Of a stretch of DNA of 35,416 nt, positions 17,111 to 34,527 are shown one piece after another. The notes beneath the pieces were generated by a model. That model was not told where the DNA came from, did no database searches, and worked only from the letters and a program-made list of their open reading frames with translations. Origin of the DNA: Solirubrobacterales bacterium (lineage in GTDB: Bacteria; Actinomycetota; Thermoleophilia; Solirubrobacterales; Solirubrobacteraceae); assembly GCA_027315255.1 (NCBI GenBank), contig DAHUYL010000084.1, positions 1 to 35,416 of the forward strand, written 5' to 3'. A program made the position numbers and the translations under genes. The number at the start of each line of letters is the position of its first letter. The stretch's first letter is position 1.

Positions 17111-18520
17111 TCACCCTGGCAGGGAGCTGCTTGGTGACGGCACGGCGACCGCCGGCCAGGCGTGGGTCAGCGTCAGGTTCCCGCGGGTCGCGTCGATGAA
17201 CGGGTCGGCCGGGCCGGTCACAAGGTTGCGCGAACGGAACGCGGTGCAATCGGATGCGCGGCACCCGGCCGTGCCGTCAGGGAGGCTTCGGCCGACCGCG
17301 AACTCGTTGTCGTAGATCTGCAGGCCGGTGTCTGTGCGGACGGTCCCGAGACCTGAGCCGTCCTGTGACGCACCGGCGAACGGCCCCGGGAGATCGACCA
17401 GCTCATCCCCCTGCACGCGCGGATTCGCGATGACGTTTCCGGCGACGGTCACGTTCAGGTCGGGGATCCGCACTTCGTTGGAGCCGTTGTCGACACGCGT
17501 GGTCCCCCATGCCCCCTCGTCAAGGTAGCGCCGGCAGTACCCGCGGCCGGGATCGCCGGGCTTGCCGTCGCAGGAGCGTAAGCCGTAGTCGATCTCGACC
17601 GTGTGCGAGGTCGATCCCGTATCCCACAGACGGTTGTCGACGAGCGCTATGTCAGCGCCACCGTTGACGCCGATGCCCGCTCCGCGGGTATGCCAGATCC
17701 AGTTGCCCGCGATCACGATTCCGTACGCCTCGTAACGATCGAACGGCGGCACCATGAACTGCAGTCCCGTTCCCTGCCCGGCCAGCAAACCGCCGGTCAC
17801 GCAGTCGTGCACGCGGTTGTCGGCGATCAGCAGATCGGCCGAGCCGCCTTTGAAATACGCGCACCAGTCCCCGGCACCGTAGATGTCGTTGCCCGTCACA
17901 TCGCCGTGCTGGACCGCGACGAACTGGAGTGGATTCTCCGACGCGCCGTGGATCACGTCGTCGTGTAGGAAGATCCACGTCGACTGATTGAACTTGACCG
18001 TGTCGAGCAGCGCTTGGGAGCCGTCGAAGCGCGAGTCCTCGAGCAGCACGTGCCGGCATTGCTCGCAATGAAACAGATCGAACTGATCGCTGAAGCGGAC
18101 CCCGTCGACGATCAGCCAGCGCACGTCGAACATGTTCACATCGGGCAGAACCGCAGTCCCCGGCTCGGCCGCACGGAGGATGACCGGCGCGGCAGCGGTT
18201 CCCCAGCGCTGCTCCCAGTAGTTCGGCGTCTGAAGCCTCCCCCAGCGGCCCGGACGCAGCACGATCGTGTACGGCACGCGCAGCGTCCGGGACTGTGGGA
18301 TCCGGTTCCAGGCCGCGGTCACCGTTTGCAGCGGACGGGCGCTGGTTCCAGGCCAGGAGTCTCGGCCATGCGCCGCGTCGACATAGATCGTGACGCCACC
18401 GGCAACGACCCCCGGCTCCCCACCGACCGTCCCAACCCGGCCGGCGACGCCAGCAAACGCATCCGATACGACCAGGGTCATCGCCGCGATTACCAGCGCG
18501 ATCAGACCTAAACGGGACAT
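17111..18520 (-). CDS. Secreted right-handed beta-helix protein
   Basis: This 469-residue protein has an N-terminal signal peptide (MSRLGLIALVIAAMTLVV...DAFA, about 1-27). It then has a DUF1565-like opening (TIYVDAAHGRDSWPGTSARP) that usually precedes parallel beta-helix repeats. The centre has many short strand-turn units with N/D-rich turns (VIAGNWIWHT, LLIADNRVHDC, TVAGNVIANP), typical of pectate-lyase-like folds. Several Cys are present, suggesting disulfides outside the cell. Catalytic residues cannot be identified, so a polysaccharide-binding or degrading role is only a guess. The ATG at 18520 was chosen over the longer frame (18595) because it starts the signal peptide. Confidence 0.85.
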   Translation of the reverse strand: MSRLGLIALVIAAMTLVVSDAFAGVAGRVGTVGGEPGVVAGGVTIYVDAAHGRDSWPGTSARPLQTVTAAWNRIPQSRTLRVPYTIVLRPGRWGRLQTPNYWEQRWGTAAAPVILRAAEPGTAVLPDVNMFDVRWLIVDGVRFSDQFDLFHCEQCRHVLLEDSRFDGSQALLDTVKFNQSTWIFLHDDVIHGASENPLQFVAVQHGDVTGNDIYGAGDWCAYFKGGSADLLIADNRVHDCVTGGLLAGQGTGLQFMVPPFDRYEAYGIVIAGNWIWHTRGAGIGVNGGADIALVDNRLWDTGSTSHTVEIDYGLRSCDGKPGDPGRGYCRRYLDEGAWGTTRVDNGSNEVRIPDLNVTVAGNVIANPRVQGDELVDLPGPFAGASQDGSGLGTVRTDTGLQIYDNEFAVGRSLPDGTAGCRASDCTAFRSRNLVTGPADPFIDATRGNLTLTHAWPAVAVPSPSSSLPG

Positions 18521-18853
18521 TGACCCTCTAATCGGCCCCAACGGCGAGTCCTGCAATCGCCCGAGCTGGCTGGGGAGTCGTGACCAGATGCCCATACGGT
18601 TACGACCGTGCTACGTCGGCAGTCGCGAGCCAGCCAGTGCGGCTCCTCCACGCCTCGGCAAGGGCTTGCGATGCTCGGGCGATCGTGGCTGCGCGCCGGC
18701 GCCGCGGTCGGTGCTTGATGGGAGGGGGTCCGGGTGCGGGGCCGGTGTGAGCTACGGGGCCTCGCGAGGGCACGATCGACGGCCTCGATCCCACACACCC
18801 CCTGTCCCAGCTCGGGGGTGGTTGCGTTGGGGTCGTGTGAGCGCGCGAAGCCA

Positions 18854-18883
18854 ACACACCCCGTTCGCGCGAGGGGGGTGTGT
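18854..18883. repeat. Hairpin ACACACCCC...GGGGTGTGT
   Basis: ACACACCCC (18854-18862) pairs exactly with GGGGTGTGT (18875-18883) around a 12-nt loop. A weaker ACCCCC/GGGGGT pair lies just upstream (about 18798-18822). With the hairpins at 19118-19205 it forms a series sharing a C5/G5 core. Confidence 0.6.
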
Positions 18884-19117
18884 GGTACTGGTGTCGTTTG
18901 CAGCAGGTCGCGTCAGGGCGGGAGGACTCTCAGTTGGAACGAGGACTCAGCCGGTCCGCGTCGGCCTGCTCGCCCGCCGTCCGCGGGCATCGACCGACCC
19001 TCGCCCCGGACCGCCGCTGGACCCCACCAGCCGCGGTCTGCCGCTGACCCCCACCCCAGGCGTCCGGGGCCGCCCCGGAGCCGAACCGCCGGAACCACGA
19101 CGCGACGACCTCAAACG

Positions 19118-19219
19118 GTCAACCCCCTGCCGCGAGGAAGGGGGTTGACGAGTTGAGGGTGCCGAGATCGCCCCAAACCGGCAACCCCCGTCACCGGCAG
19201 GGGGTGCGCGGCGTTGAGG
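19118..19219. repeat. Two tandem hairpin units, period about 62 bp
   Basis: Unit one has GTCAACCCCCT (19118-19128) paired with AGGGGGTTGAC (19139-19149), a perfect 11-bp stem, followed by TTGAGG at 19153-19158. Unit two has ACCCCC (19184-19189) paired with GGGGGT (19200-19205), followed by TTGAGG at 19214-19219. The core and the trailing hexamer keep a spacing of 61-62 bp. Confidence 0.65.
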
Positions 19220-19870
19220 ACCTACCCGAGACCTGACGGAGCACTGCTAGCAGCGCTTTGTTACGTCGAGCGCTCGACTCCCCGGGGCCGCGGGCGCACC
19301 GCGGGTCGCGGCGGCACCGGGACAGCTCTGCCAACCCACCTCGCTTCGCCTCCAATCGGCGGGGCCGTCCCGTCACCGGCGGCCGTGGCACGCCGCTGCC
19401 CGGTCGACGGCAACCCCCGTCCGCATGACCTTCGACGGACCGACCCCGCCGCCGCCGACGGCCGCCGTCGCCGTCGTCGGGTAGGCGCATCCCGGCGACG
19501 GCGGCTCGGCGGTCCGCGGGACGGGCGTCGACGAGCCCGCCCCGGCCGCCGACCGGCACAACCTCAACAGCACCCGCCCCGCGACCACACCCAGCGCACC
19601 CACGCCCCCCATACGCAGCCGATCCGCACCACCCCAACCACAAACCTCGATGCTGTCGAGCTTACGCCGCTTCCACGGGAGCCTCCAGACCCGCCCGTGC
19701 TCTGCTCTGCGACACCGACACCGTGCGGCTCCCCCCAACGCCGCGGATCGCACGCGCCCCGCAGACCCGCACACCCGACCGTGACCTGCACCCAGGCCGG
19801 CGATCATGCACACGCCAACCGCGACGACCAGTATGGCCACGCGCTCGCCGCCGGCTCACCAGGCCGCACG

Positions 19871-19906
19871 ACGATCGCGATCAACCCGACGATCGCGATC
19901 AGCCCG
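19871..19906. repeat. 18-bp tandem repeat, two copies
   Basis: ACGATCGCGATCAACCCG (19871-19888) is followed directly by ACGATCGCGATCAGCCCG (19889-19906), with one mismatch. Each unit contains the palindromic core CGATCGCGATC. Confidence 0.8.
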
Positions 19907-20128
19907 ACAAAGCACCGGTAGAAGTCAGGCCAGATTGCGGTGGTTCTGGTTCCGGGCGACCCGCACCCGATCACCCAGTCGGTCTGGGTGCGGTGGGCTG
20001 GGCGGCCGGACCCGGCGCTCGTCGCCGTCGGCAAGCGGCACCGCGGAACCCGAACGCGACATCCCGCCCGACCGCGTATCCATCATCCGTCGGGCACGGC
20101 GACGGCGAACGTGGTCGCAGCCGCGACC

Positions 20129-20584
20129 TCAGCGCACCGCGAAGCTGACCAGCTCGTGGAAGCGCTCGGCCTCGGCCGCGCCGGTCAGCACCGCACCGCC
20201 GCAGCGAAGCCACGCGTGCGCGAGCAACTCGCCCGGTGCGCCCGCGTCCCGGGCGACGCCCAGGTAGAGCGTCGCCTCGAGCCCGCGCACCCGCAGCAGC
20301 GCCGCGGCGGCGAGCGCCTGCACCAGACAGGTGCTCGGCCATGGCGTGTGTGCCGCGACCGACCGCACCGCTCGCCCGATCTGCTCGGCCCGCAGCTCGC
20401 TGGCCGGATCGACCTGCTCTGACTGCTCGCCGCGTCGCAGCCCAAGCAGCGTCGCGATCACCCGGAAGGGGAGCACGAGCAACGCGAGCCGCATCGCCGC
20501 AAGCGCGAGTGCGGCACAGACCAGCAGCCAGCGCTCGTGCCACGAACGCTCGGCCAACCTAGCTCGCAGCGTCGCCCATGACAC
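20129..20584 (-). CDS. Lasso-peptide B2 protein (transglutaminase-like leader peptidase)
   Basis: This 151-residue protein belongs to the transglutaminase-like B2 family (PF13471 type), which cleaves the leader from lasso-peptide precursors. The catalytic Cys is C86 in STCLVQALAAAALLR and the His is H123 in LLAHAWLRCGG, the pattern ERF near the C-terminus also being typical. The third catalytic acidic residue is not obvious. The N-terminal 45 residues are helical and hydrophobic, as in other actinobacterial members. The GTG at 20584 overlaps the end of the upstream B1 remnant by 26 bp, the usual B1-B2 coupling. The precursor is 2.6 kb away at 23207-23386 and the cyclase is divergent. Confidence 0.85.
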   Translation of the reverse strand: MSWATLRARLAERSWHERWLLVCAALALAAMRLALLVLPFRVIATLLGLRRGEQSEQVDPASELRAEQIGRAVRSVAAHTPWPSTCLVQALAAAALLRVRGLEATLYLGVARDAGAPGELLAHAWLRCGGAVLTGAAEAERFHELVSFAVR

Positions 20585-20694: not shown

Positions 20695-21177
20695 GTGGCG
20701 GAGCTGCGACGCGACCGGCTGGTGAGACCGACCGGAACCGTTCTCGCGGTCGGCGCGGCGGCGGTCGCGGCGACGGCGGCACAGGCGGCGACGGCGAGGA
20801 TCCGCAAGGGCGCGGCGCGGGTCAGACCGCCCGCTTCCCGCAGGTACACGGGGCACGCAGGGCAGGGACACAAGCTGCTGCTCGTGGTCGCCGGCAACTC
20901 GGTGCAGCTGCTCTCGTTCCAGTTCGTCGGTTGCTCGCGACAGCTCGGTACAACGACGCTCGACGATATTCCGCTGACGTGGACGAACAGCGGCTACCGA
21001 TTCGCGATCACCGCCTACGGCGGCGTGTCCTACACCGACAGCCGGCTCGACGACAACGCCAGGATCACCCTCGCGGGCCAGTTCGACCCCGCCGGGAGGT
21101 CGGCTCGCGGTTCCGTTCGGGTCGAGTCCCCGGGCTGCGGCCACACCGGCCTGGTGCACTGGAGCGCCGGGCGCTGA
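20695..21177 (+). CDS. Small secreted protein, unknown function
   Basis: This 160-residue protein starts at GTG 20695. Basic residues (LRRDRLVR) and a hydrophobic Ala/Val stretch form a signal peptide ending near QAATA (about residue 33). The mature part has beta-rich character (HKLLLVVAGNSVQLLSFQF, then YRFAITAYGGVSYTDSRL) and two Cys (FVGCSRQ and SPGCGHTG) that could pair. Repeated patterns of hydrophobic and polar residues suggest a beta-sandwich. No family is recognised. Its TGA overlaps the proposed CTG start of the lasso cyclase, so it is the first gene of that transcript. Similar architecture occurs in the protein at 24467-25309, which has the same SGxxDxxARITLxG-like flavour, but I could not establish homology. 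Confidence 0.75.
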   Translation: MAELRRDRLVRPTGTVLAVGAAAVAATAAQAATARIRKGAARVRPPASRRYTGHAGQGHKLLLVVAGNSVQLLSFQFVGCSRQLGTTTLDDIPLTWTNSGYRFAITAYGGVSYTDSRLDDNARITLAGQFDPAGRSARGSVRVESPGCGHTGLVHWSAGR

Positions 21178-23150
21178 GCGCGATCTGCGGAGTCATCGGG
21201 ACCGACGGTCGCCCGTGGCGCGAGTCGGACCTGGGCGGCGTGCTCGAGTCTCTGGCTCCGCTCGGGCGAGACGGCGGCGGCGCCTGGGCCGGGATGGCTG
21301 GCCGCTGCGGCGTCGCGGTCGCCGCGCGGCTGCGACACGCGACGCCCGAGGACACGATCGACTCCCAGCCCGCCCGCAGCGCGAGCGGCAAGCTCATCCT
21401 GGTCGGGGACCTGCGCGTCGACAACCGCGCGGACCTGGCGCCCGCCCTCCGGCTGCGCGACTCGCCGTCGGTACCCGACAGCGCATTCGTGCTGGCCGCC
21501 TACGAGCGGTGGGGCGAGGCGCTGCCGGATCGGATCCTCGGGGAATTCGCGCTCGCGGTCGTCGACCAGGTCCGCGGGGGGGTGCTGCTCGCCCGCGACC
21601 ACGTCGGGTTCCGACCGCTGGTCGTGCACGAGCGGCGCGGGACGGTCGCGTTCGCCACGACGGCGTTGTCGCTCACCGGGCTCGAGGGCATCGGCCACGA
21701 CCTCGACGTCGAACGCGCCGCCGAGGTGCTCGCGCTCGTCTACGAGTCCGAGCGCACGTTTGTCCAAGGCGTCCGGTGGCTGACGTCCGGGGGCGCGATG
21801 TGGGTCAGCGCCGGCGGTGTCCGCCACTGGAACTGGTGGAAGCCCGACCCCCACGAGATCGTCGAGCTCGACTCCCAGTCCGCCTACGAGGATGAGCTTC
21901 GCGACGCGCTCGACAAGGCCGTCGCCGCCCGCCTGCGCAGCTCCGGTCGGGTCGGCGCAGGCGTCAGCGGCGGCCTCGACTCCACCTCGGTGGCGGCCAC
22001 GGCAGCGCTGATGCTGGCGCCTCGCGCGCTGCCCACCTACACCTCGGCGCCGCTGCCGGGTATCTCACTCGTCCTCGAGCCGCAGCGCGACGCCGACGAA
22101 TCCCCGCTGGTGCGGCGACTTGCAGAGAAGCACCAGAACATCAAGCCGAGCTTCATCCACCTCCGTCCGGGCATCGACCTGTTCGACGTGCACCGTCAGC
22201 TATTCGAGCTGGGGGCCGGCCCGATCCGTAACCCGTGCAACATGCTGTGGATCCACGCGATTCACGAGCGGGCGGCGCAGGACCGCGTCACCACGCTGCT
22301 CACCGGCGCTCGGGGAAATTTGGGCTTCAGCGCCGACGGTCCAGATTGGCTTTCCTGGCTCGTGCGTGCTGGCCGGCTCAAGCAGGCGTGGAGCGAGGCC
22401 GCAACCTGGAGCGCCGGCCACGGGGAGAGCCGTTTCAGGCTTGCGGTGCGTCAACTCGAGACGCTCGCTCCAGGCGGCGTGCAGCGCGCGGTCCGGGCGG
22501 CGTGCGGCTTGCCGCAGCCCTCCGCAGCATGGGAGGCGGCTTCCGCGCTGCGGCCGGATGTCGGCACCGAGTTCGGTCTTCTGACGCGCGCGAGCCGGCT
22601 CGGTGGCGGGCGCTGGGAAGAGGCGCGCGCCGCAGCGCTCGCCGCCTTGCAGGCGAGCGGGGCCCAGGCCGACACGATGGCGGCGCTCGCAGCGCTGACG
22701 GGCGTCGAGGAGCGCGATCCGACAGGCGATCGCCGCGTGCTCGAGGTAGCCGGACATCAACCCGAATGGGTTCGCCGGCGCGATGGCGTAGGAAGAGCGG
22801 TCGTTCGGGGCGCGATGTCGGACAGGCAGCCGGCTGAGATCGTGCTGCGGACAAGGCGCGGCGAGCAGCTGCCCGAGTGGCTCGCGCTGATGACCAGCGC
22901 ACGGGCGGAGGTGCAGGCCGAGCTCAGTGCGCTCGAGACACACGCCGTCTCGCGCGCGCTGATCGACACGGGCCGACTGCGAGCGCTCGTCGACCGCTGG
23001 CCGCCACAGACCGCCCGATGCGATCCGCAGGTGATCAACGAATACCGCTATGCGCTTTGGCGCGCGCTGAACGTCAGCCGGTATCTGCGGTGGTTCGATT
23101 CAGCGCGTGTGTCACACCTCGACGCTGCCGGATCCTGCCTGAGCTCCTGA
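21174..23150 (+). CDS. Lasso-peptide cyclase (asparagine synthetase-like, C protein)
   Basis: This 658-residue protein resembles asparagine synthetase B and lasso cyclases. The N-terminal class II glutamine-amidotransferase-like domain (SAICGVIGTDGRPW..., about 1-190) is followed by an ATP-pyrophosphatase domain with the SGGLDSTSVA loop at about 264. Lasso cyclases adenylate the ring Asp/Glu side chain of the core peptide and close the macrolactam. No ATG, GTG or TTG in frame lies near the conserved N-terminus. The codon at the expected start is CTG (21174-21176), forming CTGA with the upstream stop, like the other 4-bp couplings in this window, so I propose a CTG start. An ATP-dependent amide-forming role fits the neighbouring precursor, B2 and kinase. 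A plain asparagine synthetase is less likely in this context. Confidence 0.85.
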   Translation: MSAICGVIGTDGRPWRESDLGGVLESLAPLGRDGGGAWAGMAGRCGVAVAARLRHATPEDTIDSQPARSASGKLILVGDLRVDNRADLAPALRLRDSPSVPDSAFVLAAYERWGEALPDRILGEFALAVVDQVRGGVLLARDHVGFRPLVVHERRGTVAFATTALSLTGLEGIGHDLDVERAAEVLALVYESERTFVQGVRWLTSGGAMWVSAGGVRHWNWWKPDPHEIVELDSQSAYEDELRDALDKAVAARLRSSGRVGAGVSGGLDSTSVAATAALMLAPRALPTYTSAPLPGISLVLEPQRDADESPLVRRLAEKHQNIKPSFIHLRPGIDLFDVHRQLFELGAGPIRNPCNMLWIHAIHERAAQDRVTTLLTGARGNLGFSADGPDWLSWLVRAGRLKQAWSEAATWSAGHGESRFRLAVRQLETLAPGGVQRAVRAACGLPQPSAAWEAASALRPDVGTEFGLLTRASRLGGGRWEEARAAALAALQASGAQADTMAALAALTGVEERDPTGDRRVLEVAGHQPEWVRRRDGVGRAVVRGAMSDRQPAEIVLRTRRGEQLPEWLALMTSARAEVQAELSALETHAVSRALIDTGRLRALVDRWPPQTARCDPQVINEYRYALWRALNVSRYLRWFDSARVSHLDAAGSCLSS

Positions 23151-23206: not shown

Positions 23207-23386
23207 TCAGGAAGCGAACGTGCCGCCATCCGCAGATGGGGTGACGAAGCCGGCTTGGGTGAGCGACCGCAGGTCACCGAGTCGGGTCACAGCCGGAGGC
23301 GAGTACTCCTCGCAGTGGGACCCGTCTGCAGAGCGCAGATCCTCAACCGATGCACACTCGTCGCTTCGCCCGATGTGCTCATTCAT
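23207..23386 (-). CDS. Lasso-peptide precursor (A)
   Basis: This 59-residue ORF lies on the minus strand behind a GGAGG site 4 bp before the ATG. Residues 28-44 (YSPPAVTRLGDLRSLTQ) fit the lasso leader pattern YxxPxLxxxGxxxxxTx exactly, with Val in place of Leu. The conserved Thr (T43) is at the penultimate leader position, so the core is AGFVTPSADGGTFAS (45-59). Ala1 can form the ring amine and Asp9 the carboxylate, giving a nine-residue macrolactam with a six-residue tail. The core ends in Ser, the residue phosphorylated by HPr-kinase-like enzymes in related pathways, and such a kinase gene lies at 25125-25961. It is convergent with the cyclase gene (56 bp between stops). Leader fit is seen directly; the product is inference. 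Confidence 0.88.
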   Translation of the reverse strand: MNEHIGRSDECASVEDLRSADGSHCEEYSPPAVTRLGDLRSLTQAGFVTPSADGGTFAS

Positions 23387-23440
23387 CCTGCCTCCTAGAG
23401 TCCGGTCTGGCCGATGCGGCCGCGGTGGTCGCGAATCTCA

Positions 23441-24385: not shown

Positions 24386-24466
24386 AGCTCGTTTCCGCCG
24401 GTGCCACCAGCGCCCGTCCGCAGTGGGCAGGAAGGACGTCGGGTCGCCGACGGTAGCTTTGAGGCG

Positions 24467-25309
24467 ATGCGCCGCGTTCTGATCGCCGTCCTCCTAGCGT
24501 CGGTTGGCACGCCCTTGGTCGTCGAGGTCGCTGCAGCCGCAGTCGCACGACCACGGCGTGGGGTCTTGATCCAGCCCGCGCGCTATCGACGGATCGTGCG
24601 ATTCCAGCTCAGCTACGCGGGCTCCGGCAGCTACGGGACCAGCTACCGGTCGACCCCGCCCAACCAAGGCGGCAATCCCGACCACGACACCGCCCACGAC
24701 TCCTCGACCCAGCACTGGTCGCTGACGTTCGCGACTCCGCTCAGGCTCCAGCCCTGCACCGCGAGCGGGCAGACCGAGCCATGCCAGTCAATCGGGTCGA
24801 TCACCGGCGCCCGCGGCACCACCGCGGTCACCGCCCGGATCTCGCACGTCCATGTCGATGGCCTGTTCGCCGACCAGAACGCCTCCGAGCGCTGCCGCCT
24901 GACCGCGTCGACCCCATCCGGCACCCTGCTCGCCGCCACGGTCGAGCTTCGATACGACCCGGCGCGACGGGTGATCATGGTGACCGCGCTCGATCCGGTC
25001 TCCGCCGCGCTTGCGCTGCTGCCGGCGCAGTGCCCGAATCAGGGCGACCCGCTGGACGGACTCGCCAGCAACTACTTCGGGCCCGGTTTCAGCTTCGATC
25101 CCGCCTACGGCCCGGACCGGTGGTTCACCTCAAGAACGGTGGCCATCCCGCTACGCGTGCTGCACCGGGCCGCCGAGATCCAGATCCGCCTGTCGCCGAC
25201 GGCTGCCGGCACCCCGCCTCGGACCTGCGACGTGCCCGATCCCGCGTACGAGCACTGCACCACCAGCGGCTCGTGGCATGGGGTGCTGACCCTGCGGCTC
25301 GAAACCTGA
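24467..25309 (+). CDS. Secreted protein of unknown function
   Basis: This 280-residue protein begins with a signal peptide (MRRVLIAVLLASVGTPLVVEVAAAAVA). The mature region is rich in beta-prone segments and Tyr/Ser/Gly (RFQLSYAGSGSYGTSY). Its Cys residues form apparent pairs (CTASGQTEPC, CDVPDPAYEHC), suggesting an extracellular disulfide-bonded fold. GAGG lies just before the ATG. No family is recognised. It is divergent from the beta-helix gene (81 bp between starts) and convergent with the lasso kinase, whose reading frame runs into this gene's 3' end. An upstream in-frame codon at 24401 would add 22 residues before the signal peptide and was rejected. Confidence 0.78.
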   Translation: MRRVLIAVLLASVGTPLVVEVAAAAVARPRRGVLIQPARYRRIVRFQLSYAGSGSYGTSYRSTPPNQGGNPDHDTAHDSSTQHWSLTFATPLRLQPCTASGQTEPCQSIGSITGARGTTAVTARISHVHVDGLFADQNASERCRLTASTPSGTLLAATVELRYDPARRVIMVTALDPVSAALALLPAQCPNQGDPLDGLASNYFGPGFSFDPAYGPDRWFTSRTVAIPLRVLHRAAEIQIRLSPTAAGTPPRTCDVPDPAYEHCTTSGSWHGVLTLRLET

Positions 25310-25961
25310 CCGGGCGCCGCGCATCATGCTCGGGCGGCACGGCTTCGGCGCCGCGCAGGCGCTCCAGCCGGAGCTCGTCAGCGTCGCGCGTCGGCACTGG
25401 TGTGAGGATCGCTGCAAGCGGTAGGCGTGGCGAGCTCGAAGTTGCGAGGCTGACCGCCGTTCGGCCGTCCATCGTCGTGTGCTGCCCGCAGGCTGCCAGC
25501 GGCCCGGCCAGCTCGGCTGCGGCCGGCCGCAGGCGCAGCACCGAGGAACCCCGAAAGCACGAGCAGCGCTCGCCGTCGCTCTCCACCCGCAGCACGTCGT
25601 CGGCCACCAGCTCGGCACCGGCGGCACAGCACCCTCCGGCCATCGTCGTCTTTCCGGTGCCGGACGCGCCGACGAACGCGATCACGCCGTCGCGTGCCTG
25701 GACGGCGCTCGCGTGCAGCACGCAGTGACCACGCAGCATCATCGCTGCCGCGATCGCGCCTCCGGCCAGCAGTGCCGGGAGCTGATCGTCCGCGTCGAGG
25801 GCGGGGTACGCGTCGAGCACACCCACCTCCGGTTCGAACTCGAACTCGCACAGCCGGTGCAGGCGCAGCGTGTAACCCGCCTCGGTGCGCACGAGCGAGC
25901 TGGCGGCGCCGGGCACCTCGAAACCCGCCAGCAGCAGACGATCGGAGTGAACCCGGCTCAA
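25125..25961 (-). CDS. HPr-kinase-like lasso tailoring kinase, 3' truncated
   Basis: The frame encodes an HPr kinase/phosphorylase C-domain-like protein. VLHASAV precedes the Walker A loop VGASGTGKTT, followed by ELVADDVLRVE, the conserved double-Asp motif of this fold. Such kinases in lasso loci phosphorylate the C-terminal Ser of the precursor core. Conservation stops after LRLERLRGAEA (about 25330). The last 61 or so codons are antisense to the secreted-protein gene and look random, so the normal C-terminal end has been lost or shifted out of frame. No ATG is near the N-terminus; TTG 25961 (SRVHSDRLLLAGFEV) is my choice and is uncertain. Activity is doubtful. Confidence 0.7.
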   Translation of the reverse strand: MSRVHSDRLLLAGFEVPGAASSLVRTEAGYTLRLHRLCEFEFEPEVGVLDAYPALDADDQLPALLAGGAIAAAMMLRGHCVLHASAVQARDGVIAFVGASGTGKTTMAGGCCAAGAELVADDVLRVESDGERCSCFRGSSVLRLRPAAAELAGPLAACGQHTTMDGRTAVSLATSSSPRLPLAAILTPVPTRDADELRLERLRGAEAVPPEHDARRPVRFRAAGSAPHATSRWWCSARTRDRARRRSEAGCRQPSATGGSGSRRPGAARVAGWPPFLR

Positions 25962-26076: not shown

Positions 26077-26439
26077 ATGACGCCCAAACGGCTCGGAGCT
26101 TCGCTCGCGACCGTCGTAGCGTTGATCACGGTGCCCGCCGTGGCCGCGGCGACTCACGACCGTGCTGAGACTGCCGGCGGTGTCGTTCACACCTGGAGCG
26201 ACTACCACCGCGCTGCGGGGACGGCGGGACCGCTGATCGCATCGCACAAGACGGTGCTGGTTGCGTGCCGCGTCCAGGGTTACAAGGTCGAGGACGGCAA
26301 CCGCTGGTGGTATCGCATCGCCTCGGCGCCGTGGCGCGGTCGCTTCTATGCGTCGGCCGACGCCTTCTACAACAATGGCCGCAAGTCGGGCAGCCTGGTG
26401 CACACGCCGTTCTTCGACCCGAAGGTGCCGGTGTGCTGA
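26077..26439 (+). CDS. Secreted SH3-like domain protein, paralogue of kinase ectodomain
   Basis: This 120-residue protein has a signal peptide (MTPKRLGASLATVVALITVPAVAAA) and one domain of about 90 residues with GNRWWYRIASAPWRGRFYAS, ADAFYNNG and a final DPKVPVC. The same domain is the extracellular end of the Ser/Thr kinase at 28122-29492; by direct comparison about 58 of 90 residues are identical. Two conserved Cys (ACR and the C-terminal Cys) probably form a disulfide. The small beta-rich domain with aromatic residues looks like a bacterial SH3-type binding module, perhaps for cell-wall or secreted ligands. The stop lies inside the next gene (GTG at 26433), so they are co-translated. Confidence 0.8.
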   Translation: MTPKRLGASLATVVALITVPAVAAATHDRAETAGGVVHTWSDYHRAAGTAGPLIASHKTVLVACRVQGYKVEDGNRWWYRIASAPWRGRFYASADAFYNNGRKSGSLVHTPFFDPKVPVC

Positions 26440-27074
26440 GCGCGGGCGCCTGCAGGCATGACACTGCGCTCCGGCCGTTCCTCGTGTGGCGGGACCGCGG
26501 CGGCGAACGGATCGTCTTCTCGCTCGGCGATCGCACCGCCGCGACCGTCGGCCGGCGCACCGCCAACGACATCGTCCTGAAAGGCGATCCGGACGCATCG
26601 CGGGCCCACGCCGAGCTCAAGCTCGTCGGCGGCGACTGGATGGTCATCGACGACGGCATGTCGACCAACGGAACGTTCGTCAACGGCCACCGTCTGCACG
26701 AGCGCAGGCGGCTGCACGACGGTGACGTGCTGCGCTTCGGGAGCACCCTCGTCGAGTTTCGGAACCCCGCCCAGGGCCAGAGCGAGGTCACCGCGATGGG
26801 ACCGATCCGGGTCACGCTCGACGACCTGAACACGTCGCAACGCAGGGTGCTGATCGCGCTCTGTCGCCCGTACAAGGAGGCGGACCCGTACGCAAAGCCG
26901 GCGACGAACAGGGAGATCGCCGGCGAGGTGTTCCTGACGGTCGAGGCGGTCAAGCAGAACCTCCGTGGGCTGTTCCGGAGGTTTGAGATCAACCACCTGC
27001 CGCACAACGAGAAGCGGGTGCGGCTGGTCGAGCTGACGCTGGAGTCGGGGCTGATCTCACGCGGCGAGCTCTGA
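26433..27074 (+). CDS. FHA-domain protein with C-terminal helix-turn-helix
   Basis: This 213-residue cytoplasmic protein has a phosphothreonine-binding FHA domain at about residues 15-105. The key residues are present: VGRRTAND, SRAHAEL and STNGTFVNG. The C-terminal half (about 125-213) is helical. It contains PATNREIAGEVFLTVEAVKQ, a probable helix-turn-helix like sigma region 4/LuxR domains, followed by ELTLESGLI. Such FHA-HTH proteins are expected to be DNA-binding targets or readers of Ser/Thr kinases, and a kinase gene is 1 kb away. The GTG at 26433 overlaps the preceding stop by 7 bp. An ATG at 26458 is out of frame. Confidence 0.85.
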   Translation: MLSAGACRHDTALRPFLVWRDRGGERIVFSLGDRTAATVGRRTANDIVLKGDPDASRAHAELKLVGGDWMVIDDGMSTNGTFVNGHRLHERRRLHDGDVLRFGSTLVEFRNPAQGQSEVTAMGPIRVTLDDLNTSQRRVLIALCRPYKEADPYAKPATNREIAGEVFLTVEAVKQNLRGLFRRFEINHLPHNEKRVRLVELTLESGLISRGEL

Positions 27075-27079
27075 CCGCA

Positions 27080-27931
27080 CTAGTCCAGCGGCGCGAGCCC
27101 TTCACGGAAGGCCACGGCGGCAAGCTCGGTCCGGGTCGTCGTCTCGCACTTGCGCATCGCGTGGGCCACGTGGCTCTGGACGGTCCGGCCCGACAGGAAC
27201 AGCTGCGTCGCGATCTGCCCGTTGGTCAATCCCTCGGCGAGGAGACGCACCACCTCCGCTTCGCGCGGCGTCAGCTGCTCGACGCAGTACCGTCGCTCGA
27301 CGCAGTACCGTCGCAGCGGTTGGGTCCGGGTGTCGCGGATCCCCTCGCTCGTGCTCGCGCGCGTCTCATGGCTCCCGACCCAGGCAATCCGCGCGACGAA
27401 CGCGAGTAGCGCAACCAGCGCCACGATGTCGACGACCACGTCCCCGGGGTGCGAGCGGGTGGCGGCGATCAGTCCGCTGTGGCGGAGTGGCACCGCCGGG
27501 ATCACCACGAGCGCTGCGGCCGCGGTCGTGGCGATCACACCCGAGCGACCGAGCAGCACCCCGCCGAGCAGGACCGCAACCGCGAACAGCAACACCCAGA
27601 TCGGCTGCCGGACCCCGTCCAGGTAGAGCAGCACGGTCGCCGCGGCTTCGAGTGACGCGATCAGCACGGCCGCGCTGAGCCGCGTCCGTCCGTCGCGCGC
27701 GAGCACGAGCAGCGCGAACGCGGCCCCGCCCGCCGCGAGGCTGAGCGCGCACCACGGGAGCATCCGCGGACCACCGTCGCTGACGGCGACGCCGAGCAGG
27801 ACGGCACCGGTCGCGCCCGATGCGACGACCGCAGTTGCGAGCATCTCGAATAGGAGCGGCTCGTCCTGCCGCGCGGGTTCCCCTGCGCTCGATGGCGCCG
27901 TCCAGCGTCGCCACAGCCCCGGACTCCGCAT
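27080..27931 (-). CDS. Membrane-anchored LuxR-type transcriptional regulator
   Basis: This 283-residue protein has about six hydrophobic helices in residues 25-190 and a C-terminal LuxR helix-turn-helix (LTPREAEVVRLLAEGLTNGQIA... SGRTVQSHVAHAMRK, about 218-275). The membrane part has no recognisable sensor domain. A linker of about 30 residues before the HTH contains the direct repeat RRYCVE-RRYCVE, from an 18-bp tandem duplication at 27279-27314. The protein may sense a membrane signal and bind DNA while anchored. It is convergent with the FHA-HTH gene (5 bp between stops) and divergent from the Ser/Thr kinase gene. Target genes cannot be told from sequence. Confidence 0.85.
   Translation of the reverse strand: MRSPGLWRRWTAPSSAGEPARQDEPLLFEMLATAVVASGATGAVLLGVAVSDGGPRMLPWCALSLAAGGAAFALLVLARDGRTRLSAAVLIASLEAAATVLLYLDGVRQPIWVLLFAVAVLLGGVLLGRSGVIATTAAAALVVIPAVPLRHSGLIAATRSHPGDVVVDIVALVALLAFVARIAWVGSHETRASTSEGIRDTRTQPLRRYCVERRYCVEQLTPREAEVVRLLAEGLTNGQIATQLFLSGRTVQSHVAHAMRKCETTTRTELAAVAFREGLAPLD
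27279..27314. repeat. 18-bp tandem duplication inside LuxR-type gene
   Basis: CTCGACGCAGTACCGTCG occurs at 27279-27296 and again at 27297-27314, identical. It adds six residues to the linker (RRYCVE twice). Identity at third codon positions points to a recent duplication. Confidence 0.9.
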
Positions 27932-28121
27932 GACCCGAGCAACGGTAGCCCGATCACATCGCCGACGGCCGGCTCACACGCTCCTGCAGCACGATCCGGC
28001 ACGAGACGGAGCGCCCCATGCGTAGAACTCCGGCGAGATTGCGGTGGTTCGGCCGCGACGGCAACGGAATCAGCCATTTGGCGGATGGAGCGGCACCGCC
28101 ACGGGACGAGAATCTCGCGCC

Positions 28122-29492
28122 GTGCGAGCCGCCGACCCTCCCGGGCAAGACCCCTCACTGATCAGGATCGACGGCTATTCGATCCACGACCTCCTCGGCC
28201 GAGGCGGGATGGCCTCGGTGTACCGCGCCACGCAGCTGTCGTTCAATCGACCGGTCGCGATCAAGCTGCTGGCGCCGTCACTGCGGTCGGACGAGAGCTT
28301 CGTCACCCGCTTCCGTCGCGAGGCCGGCGTCCAGGCGACGCTCCAGCACCCGCACATCGTGCCCGTGTTCGAGAGCGGCGAGGTGCACGGGATCCCGTTC
28401 ATCGTGATGCGACTGATCGACGGCCCGAGCCTCCGGGACCTGATTCGAACCGGCGACCTGACGACGGTTCGATCGGTCGAGCTGCTGACGGGCGTCGCGG
28501 ACGCACTCGACTGCGCTCATCGCGAAGGGATCCTTCACCGTGACGTGAAGCCCCACAACGTGCTCGTCGAGGGCGCCCAGCACGCCTGGCTCGCCGACTT
28601 CGGCCTGACGCGGCTGGTCGAGGACCGCGGCGGTCTGACGAGCGCGAGCGGGCTCGTCGGCACCTACGACTACCTCGCGCCAGAGGTCGCCCGGGGTGAG
28701 CCGGCCTCGCCCGCCAGCGACGTCTACTCACTCGCGGTCACGACGTTTCAGGTCTTGACCGGATCGCTGCCGTTCCCCGCCGCCCACCAACCGGCAGCCC
28801 TGCTCGCGCACGCGGCCGCGCCTCGCCCGCGCGCGTCAGAGGTCGAGCCCGAGCTTCCACGATCCGTCGACGAGGTCCTCCAGCGCGGGATGGCACCTGC
28901 CCCGGAGCGGCGACCGCAACGCGCGAGCGAGTTCCTCGACGACGTCCGAGCGGCAGTCGGCCTCGAGCGGACCGCCCCGCTCCGCACTCGGCTGCAACCG
29001 GCGGCAGGCACCCGATTGCCGCCCGAGGAAGTCGACAGCCGCGCGATGACCTCCGCCCCTGGACGCCAGGGCGGCCCGCGCGCGCGCCGCCGCGCCTCCC
29101 CCAGCTTCGGCCTGTGGGCGAGATTGCTCGGGACGAGCGCGATCATCGTCGCGGCAGTGCTCGCGATCGTGCTCGCCACCAGCGGCGCCGCGCGCAACAG
29201 CGGTCACGGCGGCCGCCTCGAGACGGTCGGCGGCGTGGCCCACAACTGGATCAACTACAAGCTGGCGATGGGACCCGCGGGGCCGCTGATTCCCGACCAC
29301 GCGACGATCCGGATCGCCTGCCGGCTCCACGGCTTCAGGGTGCAGGACGGCAACACCTGGTGGTACCGGATCGCGTCGAAGCCGTGGAACGGCCGCTACT
29401 ACGTGTCGGCCGATGCCTTCTACAACAACGGCCACAGGTCGGGCAGCCTGCTGCGCACGCCGTTCGTCGACCCGAGGGTGCCGCTCTGCTGA
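28122..29492 (+). CDS. PknB-like Ser/Thr kinase with single membrane helix and SH3-like ectodomain
   Basis: This 456-residue bacterial Hanks-type kinase has a glycine loop LGRGGMASVYRA (25-36), VAIK with K48, the catalytic loop HRDVKPHN (139-146), DFG (159-161) and APEV. A Pro/Arg-rich juxtamembrane stretch follows, then one membrane helix (about 336-354) and an extracellular domain (about 366-456) nearly the same as the secreted protein at 26077-26439. So the kinase likely senses an external ligand or cell-wall state and phosphorylates cytoplasmic Ser/Thr, with the nearby FHA-HTH protein a candidate partner. The GTG at 28122 was chosen because conservation starts just after it. A GTG at 28044 would add 26 Arg-rich residues that overlap a dispersed repeat. 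Confidence 0.88.
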   Translation: MRAADPPGQDPSLIRIDGYSIHDLLGRGGMASVYRATQLSFNRPVAIKLLAPSLRSDESFVTRFRREAGVQATLQHPHIVPVFESGEVHGIPFIVMRLIDGPSLRDLIRTGDLTTVRSVELLTGVADALDCAHREGILHRDVKPHNVLVEGAQHAWLADFGLTRLVEDRGGLTSASGLVGTYDYLAPEVARGEPASPASDVYSLAVTTFQVLTGSLPFPAAHQPAALLAHAAAPRPRASEVEPELPRSVDEVLQRGMAPAPERRPQRASEFLDDVRAAVGLERTAPLRTRLQPAAGTRLPPEEVDSRAMTSAPGRQGGPRARRRASPSFGLWARLLGTSAIIVAAVLAIVLATSGAARNSGHGGRLETVGGVAHNWINYKLAMGPAGPLIPDHATIRIACRLHGFRVQDGNTWWYRIASKPWNGRYYVSADAFYNNGHRSGSLLRTPFVDPRVPLC

Positions 29493-29534
29493 GCTCGACC
29501 GCGAGCACGGGCATCGAGCCAGGTGCTTGTCCCG

Positions 29535-30153: not shown

Positions 30154-31214
30154 ATGCGGCCTCGGCGGGTCGCGCTCGCAGCCGCTGTCGCGCTCGCGCT
30201 GCTTGCGGGGATGCTCGCAGTGGCCGCCCCTGCACTGGCGGGGACCGCCAACGGCGGGATCGCCGGTGCGCCTCGCGGCAACCCGATCGCCGGTCTCGAT
30301 TGGGGGATCTACAGGGGTCCCAACGGCGGCCTGTACCCGGCCTACCAGACCGCGACCGGCGCCCGCAAGCGGATCCTCGGGAAGCTCGCCCTGGAGCCGA
30401 TCACGCAGTCGCTCGGATTCTGGGACTCGACCGCGCAGGTCGGGCCCGCCGCACGGCAGATCATCGCCGACACGACCGGCGGCAACCCCGAGGTCCTCTC
30501 CCAGCTGTCGACGTTCGAGCTGAACCCGTGGGAGGGCGGCGCCTGCCACGGCAGCTGGAACGTCGGCGCCGACCAAGCGTGGTATCGAAGCCTCGCCGCG
30601 GGCATCGGCAGCGCACGCGCGTTCGTAATCGTCCAGGTCGACCTGCCCTTCGCGCTCTGCACGCCAAGCTCCGCCCCCGACACGATCACCGCGTTCGGCG
30701 CGCAGACGCTGGCGGCGCTGCCGCACACGACCGTCTACCTCGACGCCGGCGCCGCCGAGTGGGAGCCCGCCGCGAAGATGGCGGCGCTGCTGATCCGTTG
30801 CGGGATCCGGTCCGCCCGCGGGTTCGCGCTCAACGACACGCAGTACGGCTCGACCGACCTCGAGCTCCAGTACGGGGCTCAGATCGTCGCCGCACTGAGC
30901 GCCGACGGCGTCCCCGGCAAGCACTTCATCCTCAACACCGACCAGAACGGCCAGCCCTACCTCGCAGGTCAGGTCAAATCCGAGTCCAACGACACCCCCC
31001 GCTGCACGAGCCGAAGCCAGACCCTGTGCCAGCGCACCGGCATCCCCCCACGACCGACGTCGCCAACCCGCGCTGGGACCTGACCGCGACCGACGCCGCG
31101 ACCGCCCGCGCCGACGCCGACGCGTACGTCTGGTCGGGCGCGCCGTGGGACGTCAACGGCGGCGGCCTCGACCTCGCCTACGCGCTCGCGCTCGGCGCCA
31201 ACGGCGAATTCTGA
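30154..31214 (+). pseudogene. GH6-like secreted glycoside hydrolase, frameshifted in a C6 tract
   Basis: A signal peptide (MRPRRVALAAAVALALLAGM...ALAG) is followed by a glycoside hydrolase family 6-like domain. It has NPIAGLDW near the start, ARAFVIVQVDLPFAL at the position of the catalytic-acid strand, TTVYLDAGAAEWEPAAKMA, ARGFALNDTQYGSTD and GKHFILNTDQNGQP, all in family order. The frame is broken at about 31042-31047. The first frame stops at 31083, while the expected end (TTDVANPRWDLT... WDVNGGGLDLAYALALG) continues in another frame to 31214. The tract has six C here and seven in the partial copy near 32369, where the frame is correct. Loss of one C, or slippage or sequencing error, is likely. 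The family normally hydrolyses beta-1,4-glucan; the substrate here is unproven. Confidence 0.75.
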
Positions 31215-32067: not shown

Positions 32068-32514
32068 GAGGTCAGGCCGATAGGCCGCCGAGCGGCACCG
32101 CGGCGAGAGGTCCCCGGATTGAACGGTGCTCGAGCATTCAAGGAGTGGTTCGCGCTCAACGACACGCAGTACGGCTCGACCGACCTCGAGCTCCAGTACG
32201 GCGCACAGATCCTCGCCGCACTCAGCGCCGACGGCGTCCCCGGCAAGCACTTCATCGTCAACACCGACCAGAACGGCCAGCCGTACCTCGCGGGTCAGGT
32301 CAAATCCGAGTCCAACGACACGCCCCGCTGCACGAGCCGAAGCCAGACCCTGTGCCAGCGCACCGGCATCCCCCCCACGACCGACATCGCCAACCCGCGC
32401 TGGGGCCTGACCGCGGCAGACGCCGCGATCGCCCGCGCCGAGGGACGTCAACGGCGGCGGCCTCGACCTCGCCCACGCGCTCGCCGTCCGGACCAACGGC
32501 GAGTACTGACCCTA
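32068..32514 (+). pseudogene. Second partial copy of the DUF4143 3' end joined to GH6 3' end
   Basis: About 65 bp (32068-32130) match the DUF4143 3' end at 29602-29664. The sequence then passes, from about 32148, straight into a copy of the GH6-like 3' part (WFALNDTQYGSTDLELQYGA... KHFIVNTDQNGQPYLAGQVK), matching 30823-31214 closely. This copy has seven C in the tract, so the frame continues (GIPPTTDIANPRWGLT). It then lacks about 32 bp present in the first copy (after ARAD) and ends out of frame. No signal peptide or promoter is present. It is a deletion derivative of a duplicated block. Confidence 0.75.
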
Positions 32515-33543: not shown

Positions 33544-34527
33544 TCAGCGGATCGCACGCTCGTCCGATCGAGCGGCCCGCAGCCACGCCCGCAGACCTGC
33601 GGGCAGCTTGGCGGCAAGCCACCAGGGACGCCAGAGGTAGGCGAGCGCCAGCCCCCAGCCGCCCCGCCGTGCGAGCGGCCGCCAGCCACGCATGACGGCG
33701 GCCGACGGTGCCAGCTCGTGGCCGACCAGGCGCAGCTTGCCGGCAAGGCCGCGCGTCGCCACGAGGCGCTCGATCCCGACCGCCGTATCCGGCGGAGTTC
33801 CGGCCAGCAGCCGGAGCACGCGCGAAGTCTCTGTCGGTAGCGACAGGCGCCCGGCCAGCTCCGCCCCGGAAGGCACCAGGCGCAGCCCGCTGGCGAAGGC
33901 AGCGTCGCTGCCGAGCTCGCGCGCCAGGCCCGCCGCGGTGCACCACGTCGGGAGCTCCACCTGCCCGAGCGCGCGACGGAGATCCTCCATCCGCTGGGGA
34001 TCGCCGGCGCCGTGCTGCGCTGCATGAAGGGCGACGATCAGCGCGTTCGCCGGCTCGGACGGCACGCGAACCTGGGCACGGCCAACGCTGATTCTCAACG
34101 CGTTCGGTGACAAGGACCCCCACACCGCCTGCGGCGTTGCGCTCAGCAGGTACAGGGTGTGGTGCAGCTCGACGCGTGCCGGCATCGCCCCGTCGCGAAC
34201 CCAGTTGTCGTGGTGAGTGGCTCGCTCGAGGGCGTGCGCACCCTCGTACTCCCGCCGGAAGCCCAGATCGGCCAGTACCTCCTCGGCTGCCGTGAAGTCA
34301 CCGGGCGCAGGCAGCAGATCGATGTCCCCGTAGGCCCGCGCGCCGACGTCGTCTCGATAGAGCCACTCGGCGAACGCCCGTCCCTTGAGCAGCAGGTAAT
34401 CGACACCGCCGACACCGAAAGCACCGGCGATCTCGGCGAGCGTATGATCGAGCGCCAGCTGTCGCGCGGCTCGCAGGCGGCGCGACGCCACAGCAGCCCC
34501 GGGCTTCACGACAGTGCTGGCCTTCAT
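33544..34527 (-). CDS. Nucleotidyltransferase-family protein (PF14907 type)
   Basis: This 327-residue protein has VDYLLLKGRAFAEWLY (about 42-57), then ARAYGDIDLLP (about 63-73) carrying the D-x-D of a nucleotidyltransferase fold, and a helical C-terminal half. Proteins of this family recur in lasso-peptide loci and some polysaccharide loci; their reaction is generally unknown. It is basic and Leu/Ala-rich toward the C-terminus (RPWWLAAKLPAGLRAWL), which may contact membrane. A GGGAG lies before the ATG at 34527. It diverges from the methyltransferase-like gene (81 bp between starts). The longer frame toward 35244 is antisense to that gene. A link to the lasso genes 7.5 kb away is inferred from family co-occurrence. 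Confidence 0.85.
   Translation of the reverse strand: MKASTVVKPGAAVASRRLRAARQLALDHTLAEIAGAFGVGGVDYLLLKGRAFAEWLYRDDVGARAYGDIDLLPAPGDFTAAEEVLADLGFRREYEGAHALERATHHDNWVRDGAMPARVELHHTLYLLSATPQAVWGSLSPNALRISVGRAQVRVPSEPANALIVALHAAQHGAGDPQRMEDLRRALGQVELPTWCTAAGLARELGSDAAFASGLRLVPSGAELAGRLSLPTETSRVLRLLAGTPPDTAVGIERLVATRGLAGKLRLVGHELAPSAAVMRGWRPLARRGGWGLALAYLWRPWWLAAKLPAGLRAWLRAARSDERAIR

What the first reader, a model, noticed from the sequence alone, without database searches (positions are those of the whole stretch)
23207..23386. A short unannotated ORF is a lasso-peptide precursor with Asp9 ring acceptor and C-terminal Ser
The 59-residue minus-strand ORF has a leader YSPPAVTRLGDLRSLTQ that satisfies the lasso rule YxxPxLxxxGxxxxxTx, and a core AGFVTPSADGGTFAS with an Ala at position 1 and Asp at position 9. 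It sits beside a lasso cyclase and near B2 and a kinase of the family that phosphorylates C-terminal Ser, and the core ends in Ser. The core starts with Ala rather than the commonest Gly. By residue masses the cyclised core should be near 1365.62 Da, or about 1445.59 with one phosphate. Such a peptide, in this taxon and with this sequence, may be undescribed.
Basis: partly seen in the sequence, partly recalled or inferred. Interest (0 to 1): 0.9.

Follow-up and report, generated by a model that had tools for sequence, protein, structure and literature searches.

The report
Lasso peptide precursor, split processing genes
A bacterium related to Solirubrobacteraceae encodes a small knotted ("lasso") peptide; the gene is convincing, but its locus lacks one of the two usual leader-cutting partners, which was found only at a second lasso-like locus of the same genome, so the two loci may share machinery.

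Summary
The 59-codon ORF is very probably a lasso-peptide precursor: it passes NCBIfam's lasso-leader cut-off (24.6 against 19 bits), has a Shine-Dalgarno site, and lies by a lasso-type cyclase and the assembly's only B2. Predicted core AGFVTPSADGGTFAS, Ala1-Asp9 ring, cyclised mass 1365.620. Two points it missed matter more. (1) The window has no detectable B1 (RRE). The only PqqD over cut-off in this 92%-complete genome is on another contig, in a second lasso-like locus (cyclase, precursor, kinase, B1, transporter) that lacks B2. The loci may share one leader peptidase in trans. A single-contig relative also has B1, B2 and precursors far apart, but 12 of 15 genomes with both keep B1 and B2 within about 4 kb. 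(2) The window kinase has lost its last ~65 residues to a neighbouring gene, and its nearest relatives sit beside precursors ending in Leu or Val, so the phosphopeptide (1445.586) is doubtful, although C-terminal Ser recurs in the two closest short precursors. The peptide is a new member of a known class; the trans-shared peptidase is the interesting, untested part. A decaying locus is the main rival.

The parts
23207..23386 (-). lasso precursor gene (A), 59 aa, ATG start
   Evidence: translation; NF033521 24.6 bits > cut-off 19
23391..23396 (-). Shine-Dalgarno AGGAGG, 4 nt before the ATG
   Evidence: sequence printed
23255..23305 (-). conserved leader segment YSPPAVTRLGDLRSLTQ (-17 to -1), predicted B1-binding motif and Thr(-2)
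23210..23254 (-). predicted core AGFVTPSADGGTFAS; ring Ala1-Asp9, tail GGTFAS
   Evidence: boundary inferred from Thr(-2) and from the related precursors
21174..23150 (+). lasso cyclase (C), Asn-synthase type, SGGLDST present; start uncertain, perhaps the CTG at 21174 overlapping the upstream stop (L086 has GTG at the same place); an in-frame TTG lies at 20931
   Evidence: PF00733 94 bits; NF033535 269 bits, under its 525 cut-off; 51% identity to L164; alignment; starts
20129..20584 (-). leader peptidase B2, Cys and His of the transglutaminase fold present; the only Transglut_core3 match (E <= 0.01) in the assembly
   Evidence: PF13471 95.5 bits; NF033537 102 bits
25338..26129 (-). HprK-related kinase remnant (K): His, GASGTGKTT and DD kept; last ~65 aa missing; ORF runs on to 25125 antisense to the next gene
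33544..34500 (-). NTP_transf_5 nucleotidyltransferase (N), 7.4 kb beyond K; same family occurs in several relatives' lasso loci
   Evidence: PF14907 89 bits
23441..24385 (-). intervening ORF, very weakly NosD-like, not a recognised lasso gene
   Evidence: TIGR04247 17 bits, cut-off 300; no Pfam match
24401..25309 (+). intervening ORF with signal-peptide-like N-terminus (by eye), no family match; its 3' end occupies the place of the kinase C-terminus
   Evidence: GC3 0.85 in its own frame over 25127-25309

Best explanation
The ORF encodes the precursor of a short (15-residue) lasso peptide. Inferred route: an RRE (B1) binds the YSPPAV leader motif and presents the precursor to B2 (20129-20584), which cuts after Gln(-1). 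The cyclase (21174-23150) then activates Asp9 and joins it to the Ala1 amine, with the tail GGTFAS threaded through the 9-residue ring. B1 is not in the window. The most likely supplier is the single B1 of the genome's second lasso-like locus (contig C1), whose own pathway would use the window's B2 in return. The truncated kinase next door probably no longer works, so the product is most likely unphosphorylated. Shown: ORF, motifs, homologies, gene positions, copy numbers in the assembly. Inferred: ring, threading, B1 sharing, loss of phosphorylation.
For: Lasso-leader model over cut-off, genome-wide E 1.6e-4; SD site. B2 and C identified. The closest cyclases in other genomes (51% L164; 53.5% L103, a fragment; 44% L086) each have a lasso-type leader nearby: WVAPTLTDVGSFEEVTQ|TGLSGVADIEGQS (27.5 bits), WTTPTLTVHGDVAKLTA|QDILAIPDGGAGSS (19.2 bits), and a leader fused to an S74 domain in L164 (15.9 bits, below cut-off). 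One B2 in the assembly by two models; one PqqD over cut-off, on C1, best matched by lasso B1 NF033530 (57.8 bits, cut-off 70). C1 holds a cyclase, a precursor (NF033521 21.2 bits), a kinase, B1 and an ABC transporter but no B2; its cyclase is 44% identical to one in L099, a locus that also has A, K, B1, B2 and N. In paeninodin neither B1 nor B2 cuts alone (PMC5067487, section 7 read), so the window locus needs a B1 from somewhere. Single-contig relative G035 has its one B2 at 80 kb, C/K/B1 at 3.95 Mb and two precursors at 3.25 Mb of a 4.43-Mb contig; its C and B2 are closest, in the sets compared, to those of G078 (K ties between G078 and G073), and in G078 the genes are clustered.
Against: The assembly is a 92.2% complete draft of 231 contigs, so a second B1 or B2 could be missing. 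In 12 of the 15 genomes (of 101 searched) that have both a B2 over cut-off and a PqqD, the two lie within about 4 kb, so separation is not the rule. PadeB1/B2 could not cut a foreign precursor (PMC5067487), and RREs can discriminate between pathways (PMC13381572 passages), so one B1 serving two leaders is not guaranteed. The C1 cyclase scores poorly on the lasso cyclase model (29.8 bits, cut-off 525) and was not among the E <= 1e-20 hits; its lasso role rests on its neighbours and on L099. The window cyclase is also below that cut-off and has no ordinary start codon at the expected place. The missing B1 and broken kinase could equally mean a decaying locus. The precursor's GC3 is unremarkable. 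The composition test fits C1 to this genome but does not separate it from same-genus genomes.
Confidence: 0.6

Rival explanations
1. The locus is a decaying lasso cluster: B1 was lost, the kinase was cut off by rearrangement, and the precursor is a relic that is no longer matured.
For: No B1 detected in the window; kinase C-terminus replaced by an unrelated gene; unrelated ORFs lie between A and K; GC3 of A only 0.70.
Against: Precursor, B2 and cyclase keep the elements checked: leader motif, SD, Asp9, Cys/His, SGGLDST, uninterrupted frames. A lasso-type B1 exists elsewhere in the genome.
Confidence: 0.27
2. A phosphorylated lasso of the paeninodin kind: the local kinase phosphorylates Ser15, then B1/B2/C mature the peptide (1445.586 Da).
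For: Core ends in Ser; kinase catalytic His, Lys and Asp-Asp present; the two closest short precursors also end in Ser; C-terminal Ser phosphorylation is established for PadeK/ThcoK (PMC9266682, passages).
Against: The kinase lacks ~65 C-terminal residues that the other 18 kinases aligned appear to share (19 of the 25 kinase-like frames were aligned, six in L169, L171 and L178 were left out), and the tail is non-coding in its frame by composition. Its two nearest relatives serve precursors ending in Leu and Val. The sister kinase on C1 has Arg for the Walker-A Lys, the only one of the 19. Of 15 precursors in 13 loci with a kinase, 5 end in Ser (weak L102 hit and L164 fusion left out). No B1 in the locus.
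Confidence: 0.08
3. The ORF is a precursor of another RRE-dependent class (PQQ-like, or a linear polyphosphorylated peptide, LPP), not a lasso.
For: The [Y/W]xxP leader motif is shared with PQQ and LPP precursors; LPP clusters carry HprK-like kinase, NTP transferase and transporter (PMC13381572 passages).
Against: A lasso-type cyclase and B2 are close by and Asp9 is at the right distance; LPP clusters are described there as having no macrolactam cyclase and an SpI-type leader peptidase.
Confidence: 0.03

Closest known systems
Lasso peptides with split B1/B2 (NCBIfam NF033521 / NF033537 / NF033535 machinery)
   Same: Leader motif and Thr(-2), B2, Asn-synthase-type cyclase, acid at ring position 9
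   Different: No B1 detected in the locus; the genome's only PqqD over cut-off is at a second lasso-like locus
Paeninodin-type phosphorylated lasso peptides (PadeK/ThcoK) and the bsf cluster (BsfK, BsfN)
   Same: HprK-related kinase and NTP_transf_5 in the region; core ends in Ser
   Different: Kinase truncated; NTP gene 7.4 kb away; kinase related to those beside Leu/Val-ended precursors
CADCVT010000176.1 and CADCVT010000365.1 (G053, uncultured Solirubrobacteraceae AVDCRST_MAG85) and JAHFUP010000011.1 (Acidimicrobiia MAG nzgw82)
   Same: Same cyclase clade, 44-54% identity; cores with acid at 8-9; non-Gly residue 1 (T, Q, F; A in the window); C-terminal Ser in both short precursors
   Different: Each has a B1 within about 2 kb of the cyclase; the L164 precursor-like ORF carries an S74 domain; their kinases fall outside the window/C1/L099 kinase group

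Membership tests
lasso peptide precursor | leader motif [Y/W]xxPx(hydrophobic) at -17 to -12 and Thr at -2 | tested here: met
   YSPPAV ... LTQ; NF033521 24.6 bits, cut-off 19
lasso peptide precursor | Asp or Glu at core position 7-9 | tested here: met
   Asp9
lasso peptide biosynthetic locus | macrolactam cyclase C nearby | tested here: met
   PF00733 over cut-off; NF033535 is the best NCBIfam hit though below its exception-type cut-off (269 of 525 bits)
lasso peptide biosynthetic locus | leader peptidase B2 | tested here: met
   NF033537 102 bits, cut-off 33
lasso peptide biosynthetic locus | RRE/PqqD-type B1 in the same locus | tested here: not met
   PF05402 at E <= 1 finds none in the window; single match over cut-off on contig C1
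lasso peptide | threaded macrolactam product | not testable with these tools
   needs mass spectrometry/NMR
paeninodin-type phosphorylated lasso | intact HprK-like tailoring kinase in the locus | tested here: not met
   catalytic motif kept, last ~65 aa missing
paeninodin-type phosphorylated lasso | C-terminal Ser acceptor | tested here: met
   core ends in Ser15
linear polyphosphorylated peptide (LPP) | no macrolactam cyclase; SpI-type leader peptidase instead of B2 | tested here: not met
   cyclase and B2 present; SpI itself was not searched for

The most novel reading that the evidence does not exclude
Two lasso pathways in one bacterium depend on a single leader peptidase whose halves are encoded at two separate loci (B2 here, B1 on contig C1): a reciprocal, trans-complementing arrangement in which neither cluster is complete alone and one RRE must read two different leaders. 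The single-contig relative G035 would be an independently dispersed case, which cluster-based mining would miss.
Probability: 0.45. Interest if true: 0.55.

Novelty: new member of a known kind. Interest (0 to 1): 0.4.

Why it matters
Lasso peptides are stable scaffolds with antibiotic and receptor-binding activities (recalled). Searches of the paper library pairing 'lasso peptide' with Solirubrobacter and with Thermoleophil listed two papers each, holding each term once. A leader peptidase shared between loci would mean that mining which requires A, B1, B2 and C side by side undercounts lasso pathways, and would give a natural test of how one RRE copes with two leaders.

Tried and rejected
A B1 hidden in the window: the six-frame PF05402 search at E <= 1 found none there; the second, weak genome hit on C126 (20.3 bits, below cut-off) lies in a 543-aa frame that reads like a methyltransferase (by eye), not a B1. 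A frame-shifted kinase C-terminus: tblastn of the C1 kinase against the window gave one strong match ending at its residue 312 of 379 and no convincing match to the rest beside the remnant (low-threshold output, cut in the middle). Close homologues of the precursor: a protein search of 101 genomes gave itself and matches of E >= 0.005; the best of these (G035) overlaps a frame later scored as a lasso leader, so it is a distant relative. One-sequence cyclase scan of genome contigs: nothing; the alignment scan gave three loci, two of them already in hand under other ids. The cyclase clade looks rare: 1 of 399 class genomes at E <= 1e-60, 1 of 396 phylum genomes at E <= 1e-80, 2 of 146 family genomes at E <= 1e-60, the window's own genome counted in each; only the best 3 to 8 candidates per genome were scored in these searches, so some could be missed. 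Foreign origin of C1: GC 0.710 and tetranucleotide profile fit the window's genome, but same-genus genomes fit about as well, so the test is weak. Two other Asn-synthase-like hits in the genome (C188, C171): the loose leader scan printed no lasso leader in the stretches fetched; they were not annotated further. S74-fused precursors elsewhere: 5 of 396 genomes had matches at E <= 1e-8, in the S74 part only, and the leader pattern was not found in the stretches fetched. Literature on B1 or B2 supplied from another locus: three term searches listed nothing on it that I could see from titles and abstracts; most papers were not opened, so this is not proof of absence. Papers opened for passages but not used: PMC13352647, PMC8498205. 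No structure prediction was run.

Full report
Observation. The ORF 23207-23386(-) reads exactly as described. Its leader matches NCBIfam NF033521, the lasso-leader model, with 24.6 bits (cut-off 19). Over the 4.31-Mb genome this is E = 1.6e-4; the only other match listed over the cut-off is on contig C1. AGGAGG stands 4 nt before the ATG. The pattern leader plus acid at position 7-9 near an ORF end is found once in the window and in 3 of 400 first-order Markov copies of it. The quoted rule is met except that position -12 is Val; V belongs to the published RRE motif (PMC13381572, passages). The masses are right: 1365.6201 and 1445.5864. Against: GC3 of the ORF is only 0.70, where seven neighbouring genes show 0.82-0.88.

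Surroundings. B2 lies at 20129-20584(-) (PF13471 95.5 bits, NF033537 102 bits) and the cyclase at 21174-23150(+) (PF00733 94 bits; NF033535 269 bits, under that model's 525). The cyclase may start at a CTG that overlaps the upstream stop, where L086 has GTG; an in-frame TTG lies far upstream at 20931. Between precursor and kinase lie two ORFs without a convincing family. An NTP_transf_5 gene, a family present in several relatives' lasso loci, lies 7.4 kb beyond the kinase.

Kinase. It reaches no family cut-off (HprK_rel_B 27.1 bits, cut-off 200; Pfam Hpr_kinase_C 16.9, cut-off 33.3) and is identified through its relatives. It aligns with the C1 kinase at 57% identity over 25931-25338 and stops there; the last 67 residues of the C1 ORF have no convincing counterpart beside it. 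In the kinase frame the tail 25125-25337 does not look coding (GC by codon position 0.69/0.83/0.63), while the opposite ORF's frame does (GC3 0.85). In an alignment of 19 kinases (of 25 kinase-like frames found) the window's is the one without the common C-terminus, and the C1 kinase the only one with Arg for the Walker-A Lys. In the tree the window and C1 kinases are sisters (100/98), with L099 next (97/97); the precursors there end in Leu (C1) and Val (L099). Among 15 precursors in 13 loci that also have a kinase, 5 end in Ser, the window's included (I left out the weak L102 hit and the S74 fusion in L164). Kinases of this kind phosphorylate a C-terminal Ser in paeninodin-like systems (PMC9266682, passages) but a ring Ser3 in bsf (PMC10368454, passages incl. 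abstract). The phosphopeptide is therefore a weak prediction.

B1 and the second locus. PF05402 finds one PqqD over cut-off in the genome, at C1:10040-10240, and one sub-threshold hit on C126 in an unrelated-looking 543-aa frame. The C1 protein is best matched by lasso B1 (NF033530 57.8 bits, cut-off 70). C1 (11,586 bp) carries an ABC transporter, an Asn-synthase-type cyclase, a precursor with predicted core GSTTHVTDTSGLGSLPGL (NF033521 21.2 bits), a kinase and B1, but no B2. That cyclase scores poorly on the lasso cyclase model (29.8 bits, cut-off 525); its assignment rests on its neighbours and on 44% identity to the cyclase of L099, a locus with A, K, B1, B2 and N. The assembly has one Transglut_core3/B2, in the window. 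B2, C, A and K lie 20 kb and 9 kb from the contig's ends (contig length 35,416), so the missing B1 is not a contig-edge effect there, but the genome is 92.2% complete in 231 contigs. C1 has the genome's GC and a compatible, though not discriminating, tetranucleotide profile. In the paeninodin system neither half cuts alone (PMC5067487, section 7), so the window locus needs a B1 from elsewhere.

Relatives. Of 101 genomes, 16 have a B2 over cut-off; 15 of these have a PqqD at E <= 1e-5, and in 12 of the 15 B1 and B2 lie within about 4 kb. The exceptions are the window's genome, G001 (its B2 contig is only 5.3 kb, so uninformative) and G035. G035 is a single 4.43-Mb contig: B2 at 80 kb, B1 with C and K at 3.95 Mb, two precursors at 3.25 Mb; the loose leader scan of about 39 kb around B1 and 20 kb around B2 printed no further lasso leader. 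Its C (49%) and B2 (48%) are closest, in the sets compared, to those of G078, and its K ties between G078 (38%) and G073 (34%); in G078 the genes sit together. G053 has one B2 but PqqD matches at four places, two of them near cyclases of the window's clade; G053 is a fragmented, 79% complete assembly. So dispersed lasso genes do occur in this family, but as a minority.

The cyclase clade. The window's cyclase is closest to L164 (51%, Acidimicrobiia MAG nzgw82), L103 (53.5%, fragment) and L086 (44%), the last two from Solirubrobacteraceae MAG AVDCRST_MAG85. Those contigs are G053's, ranked 'same family' as the window's genome, which places the window in or near Solirubrobacteraceae. Predicted cores are AGFVTPSADGGTFAS, TGLSGVADIEGQS, QDILAIPDGGAGSS and, in L164, FGGTVDAD... 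in front of an S74 domain. None starts with Gly and the three short ones end in Ser. Ala at position 1 is precedented and Asn1 was reported in metanodin (PMC12670498, outline and passages). The clade looks rare in the samples searched.

Mechanism. Most likely: B1 from the C1 locus binds the leader and delivers the precursor to the window's B2; the window's cyclase closes Ala1-Asp9 around the tail. Shown: genes, motifs, copy numbers in the assembly. Inferred: every chemical step, the sharing of B1, and the absence of phosphorylation. My own weights: lasso precursor about 0.93, A1-D9 ring about 0.85, B1 supplied from C1 about 0.5-0.6, C-terminal phosphorylation below 0.1. The main rival is a decaying locus.

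Novelty. The peptide is a new member of a known class; its strings occur in no paper of the library searched. Searches pairing 'lasso peptide' with Solirubrobacter and Thermoleophil listed two papers each, with one mention of each term. The reciprocal split of the leader peptidase over two loci is the point that would interest a specialist, and it is directly testable by co-expression.

Noticed in passing
L164:7310-7750(+) (JAHFUP010000011.1): A lasso-type leader (YEPPSLVWLGPLVDLTR, 15.9 bits, below cut-off) and core-like FGGTVDAD segment are fused to a Peptidase_S74 (endosialidase chaperone) domain, between B2/kinase and B1/cyclase; a second S74 ORF lies just upstream (6961-7260). S74 domains can self-cleave (recalled), which could set the C-terminus of the core.
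   Followed up: partly
G035:C1 80121, 3249503-3249751, 3949344-3951551: In a single-contig genome the only B2, two lasso precursors, and cyclase+kinase+B1 lie far apart.
   Followed up: partly
L006:8788-9997: Second lasso-like locus of the same genome; its full-length kinase has Arg in place of the Walker-A Lys (GASGQGRTT).
   Followed up: partly
window 26167-26454 and 29220-29507: A 288-nt segment coding a WWYRI/YNNG domain is repeated (76%), once in a stand-alone ORF (26077-26439) and once at the C-terminus of an ORF that looks by eye like a Ser/Thr kinase (28044-29492).
   Followed up: no
window 30821-31214 and 32147-32509: Partial duplication in three blocks (86-97%) of part of a secreted, glucanase-like ORF (function guessed by eye); the second copy looks like a fragment.
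   Followed up: no
window about 27277-27317: In the LuxR-type ORF 27080-27931(-) a short motif (RRYCVE) is tandemly repeated just before the HTH domain.
   Followed up: no
window 18600-20100: About 1.5 kb of GC-rich sequence that looked gene-poor by eye, between ORF 17111-18595 and B2; its ORFs were not tested against any library.
   Followed up: no
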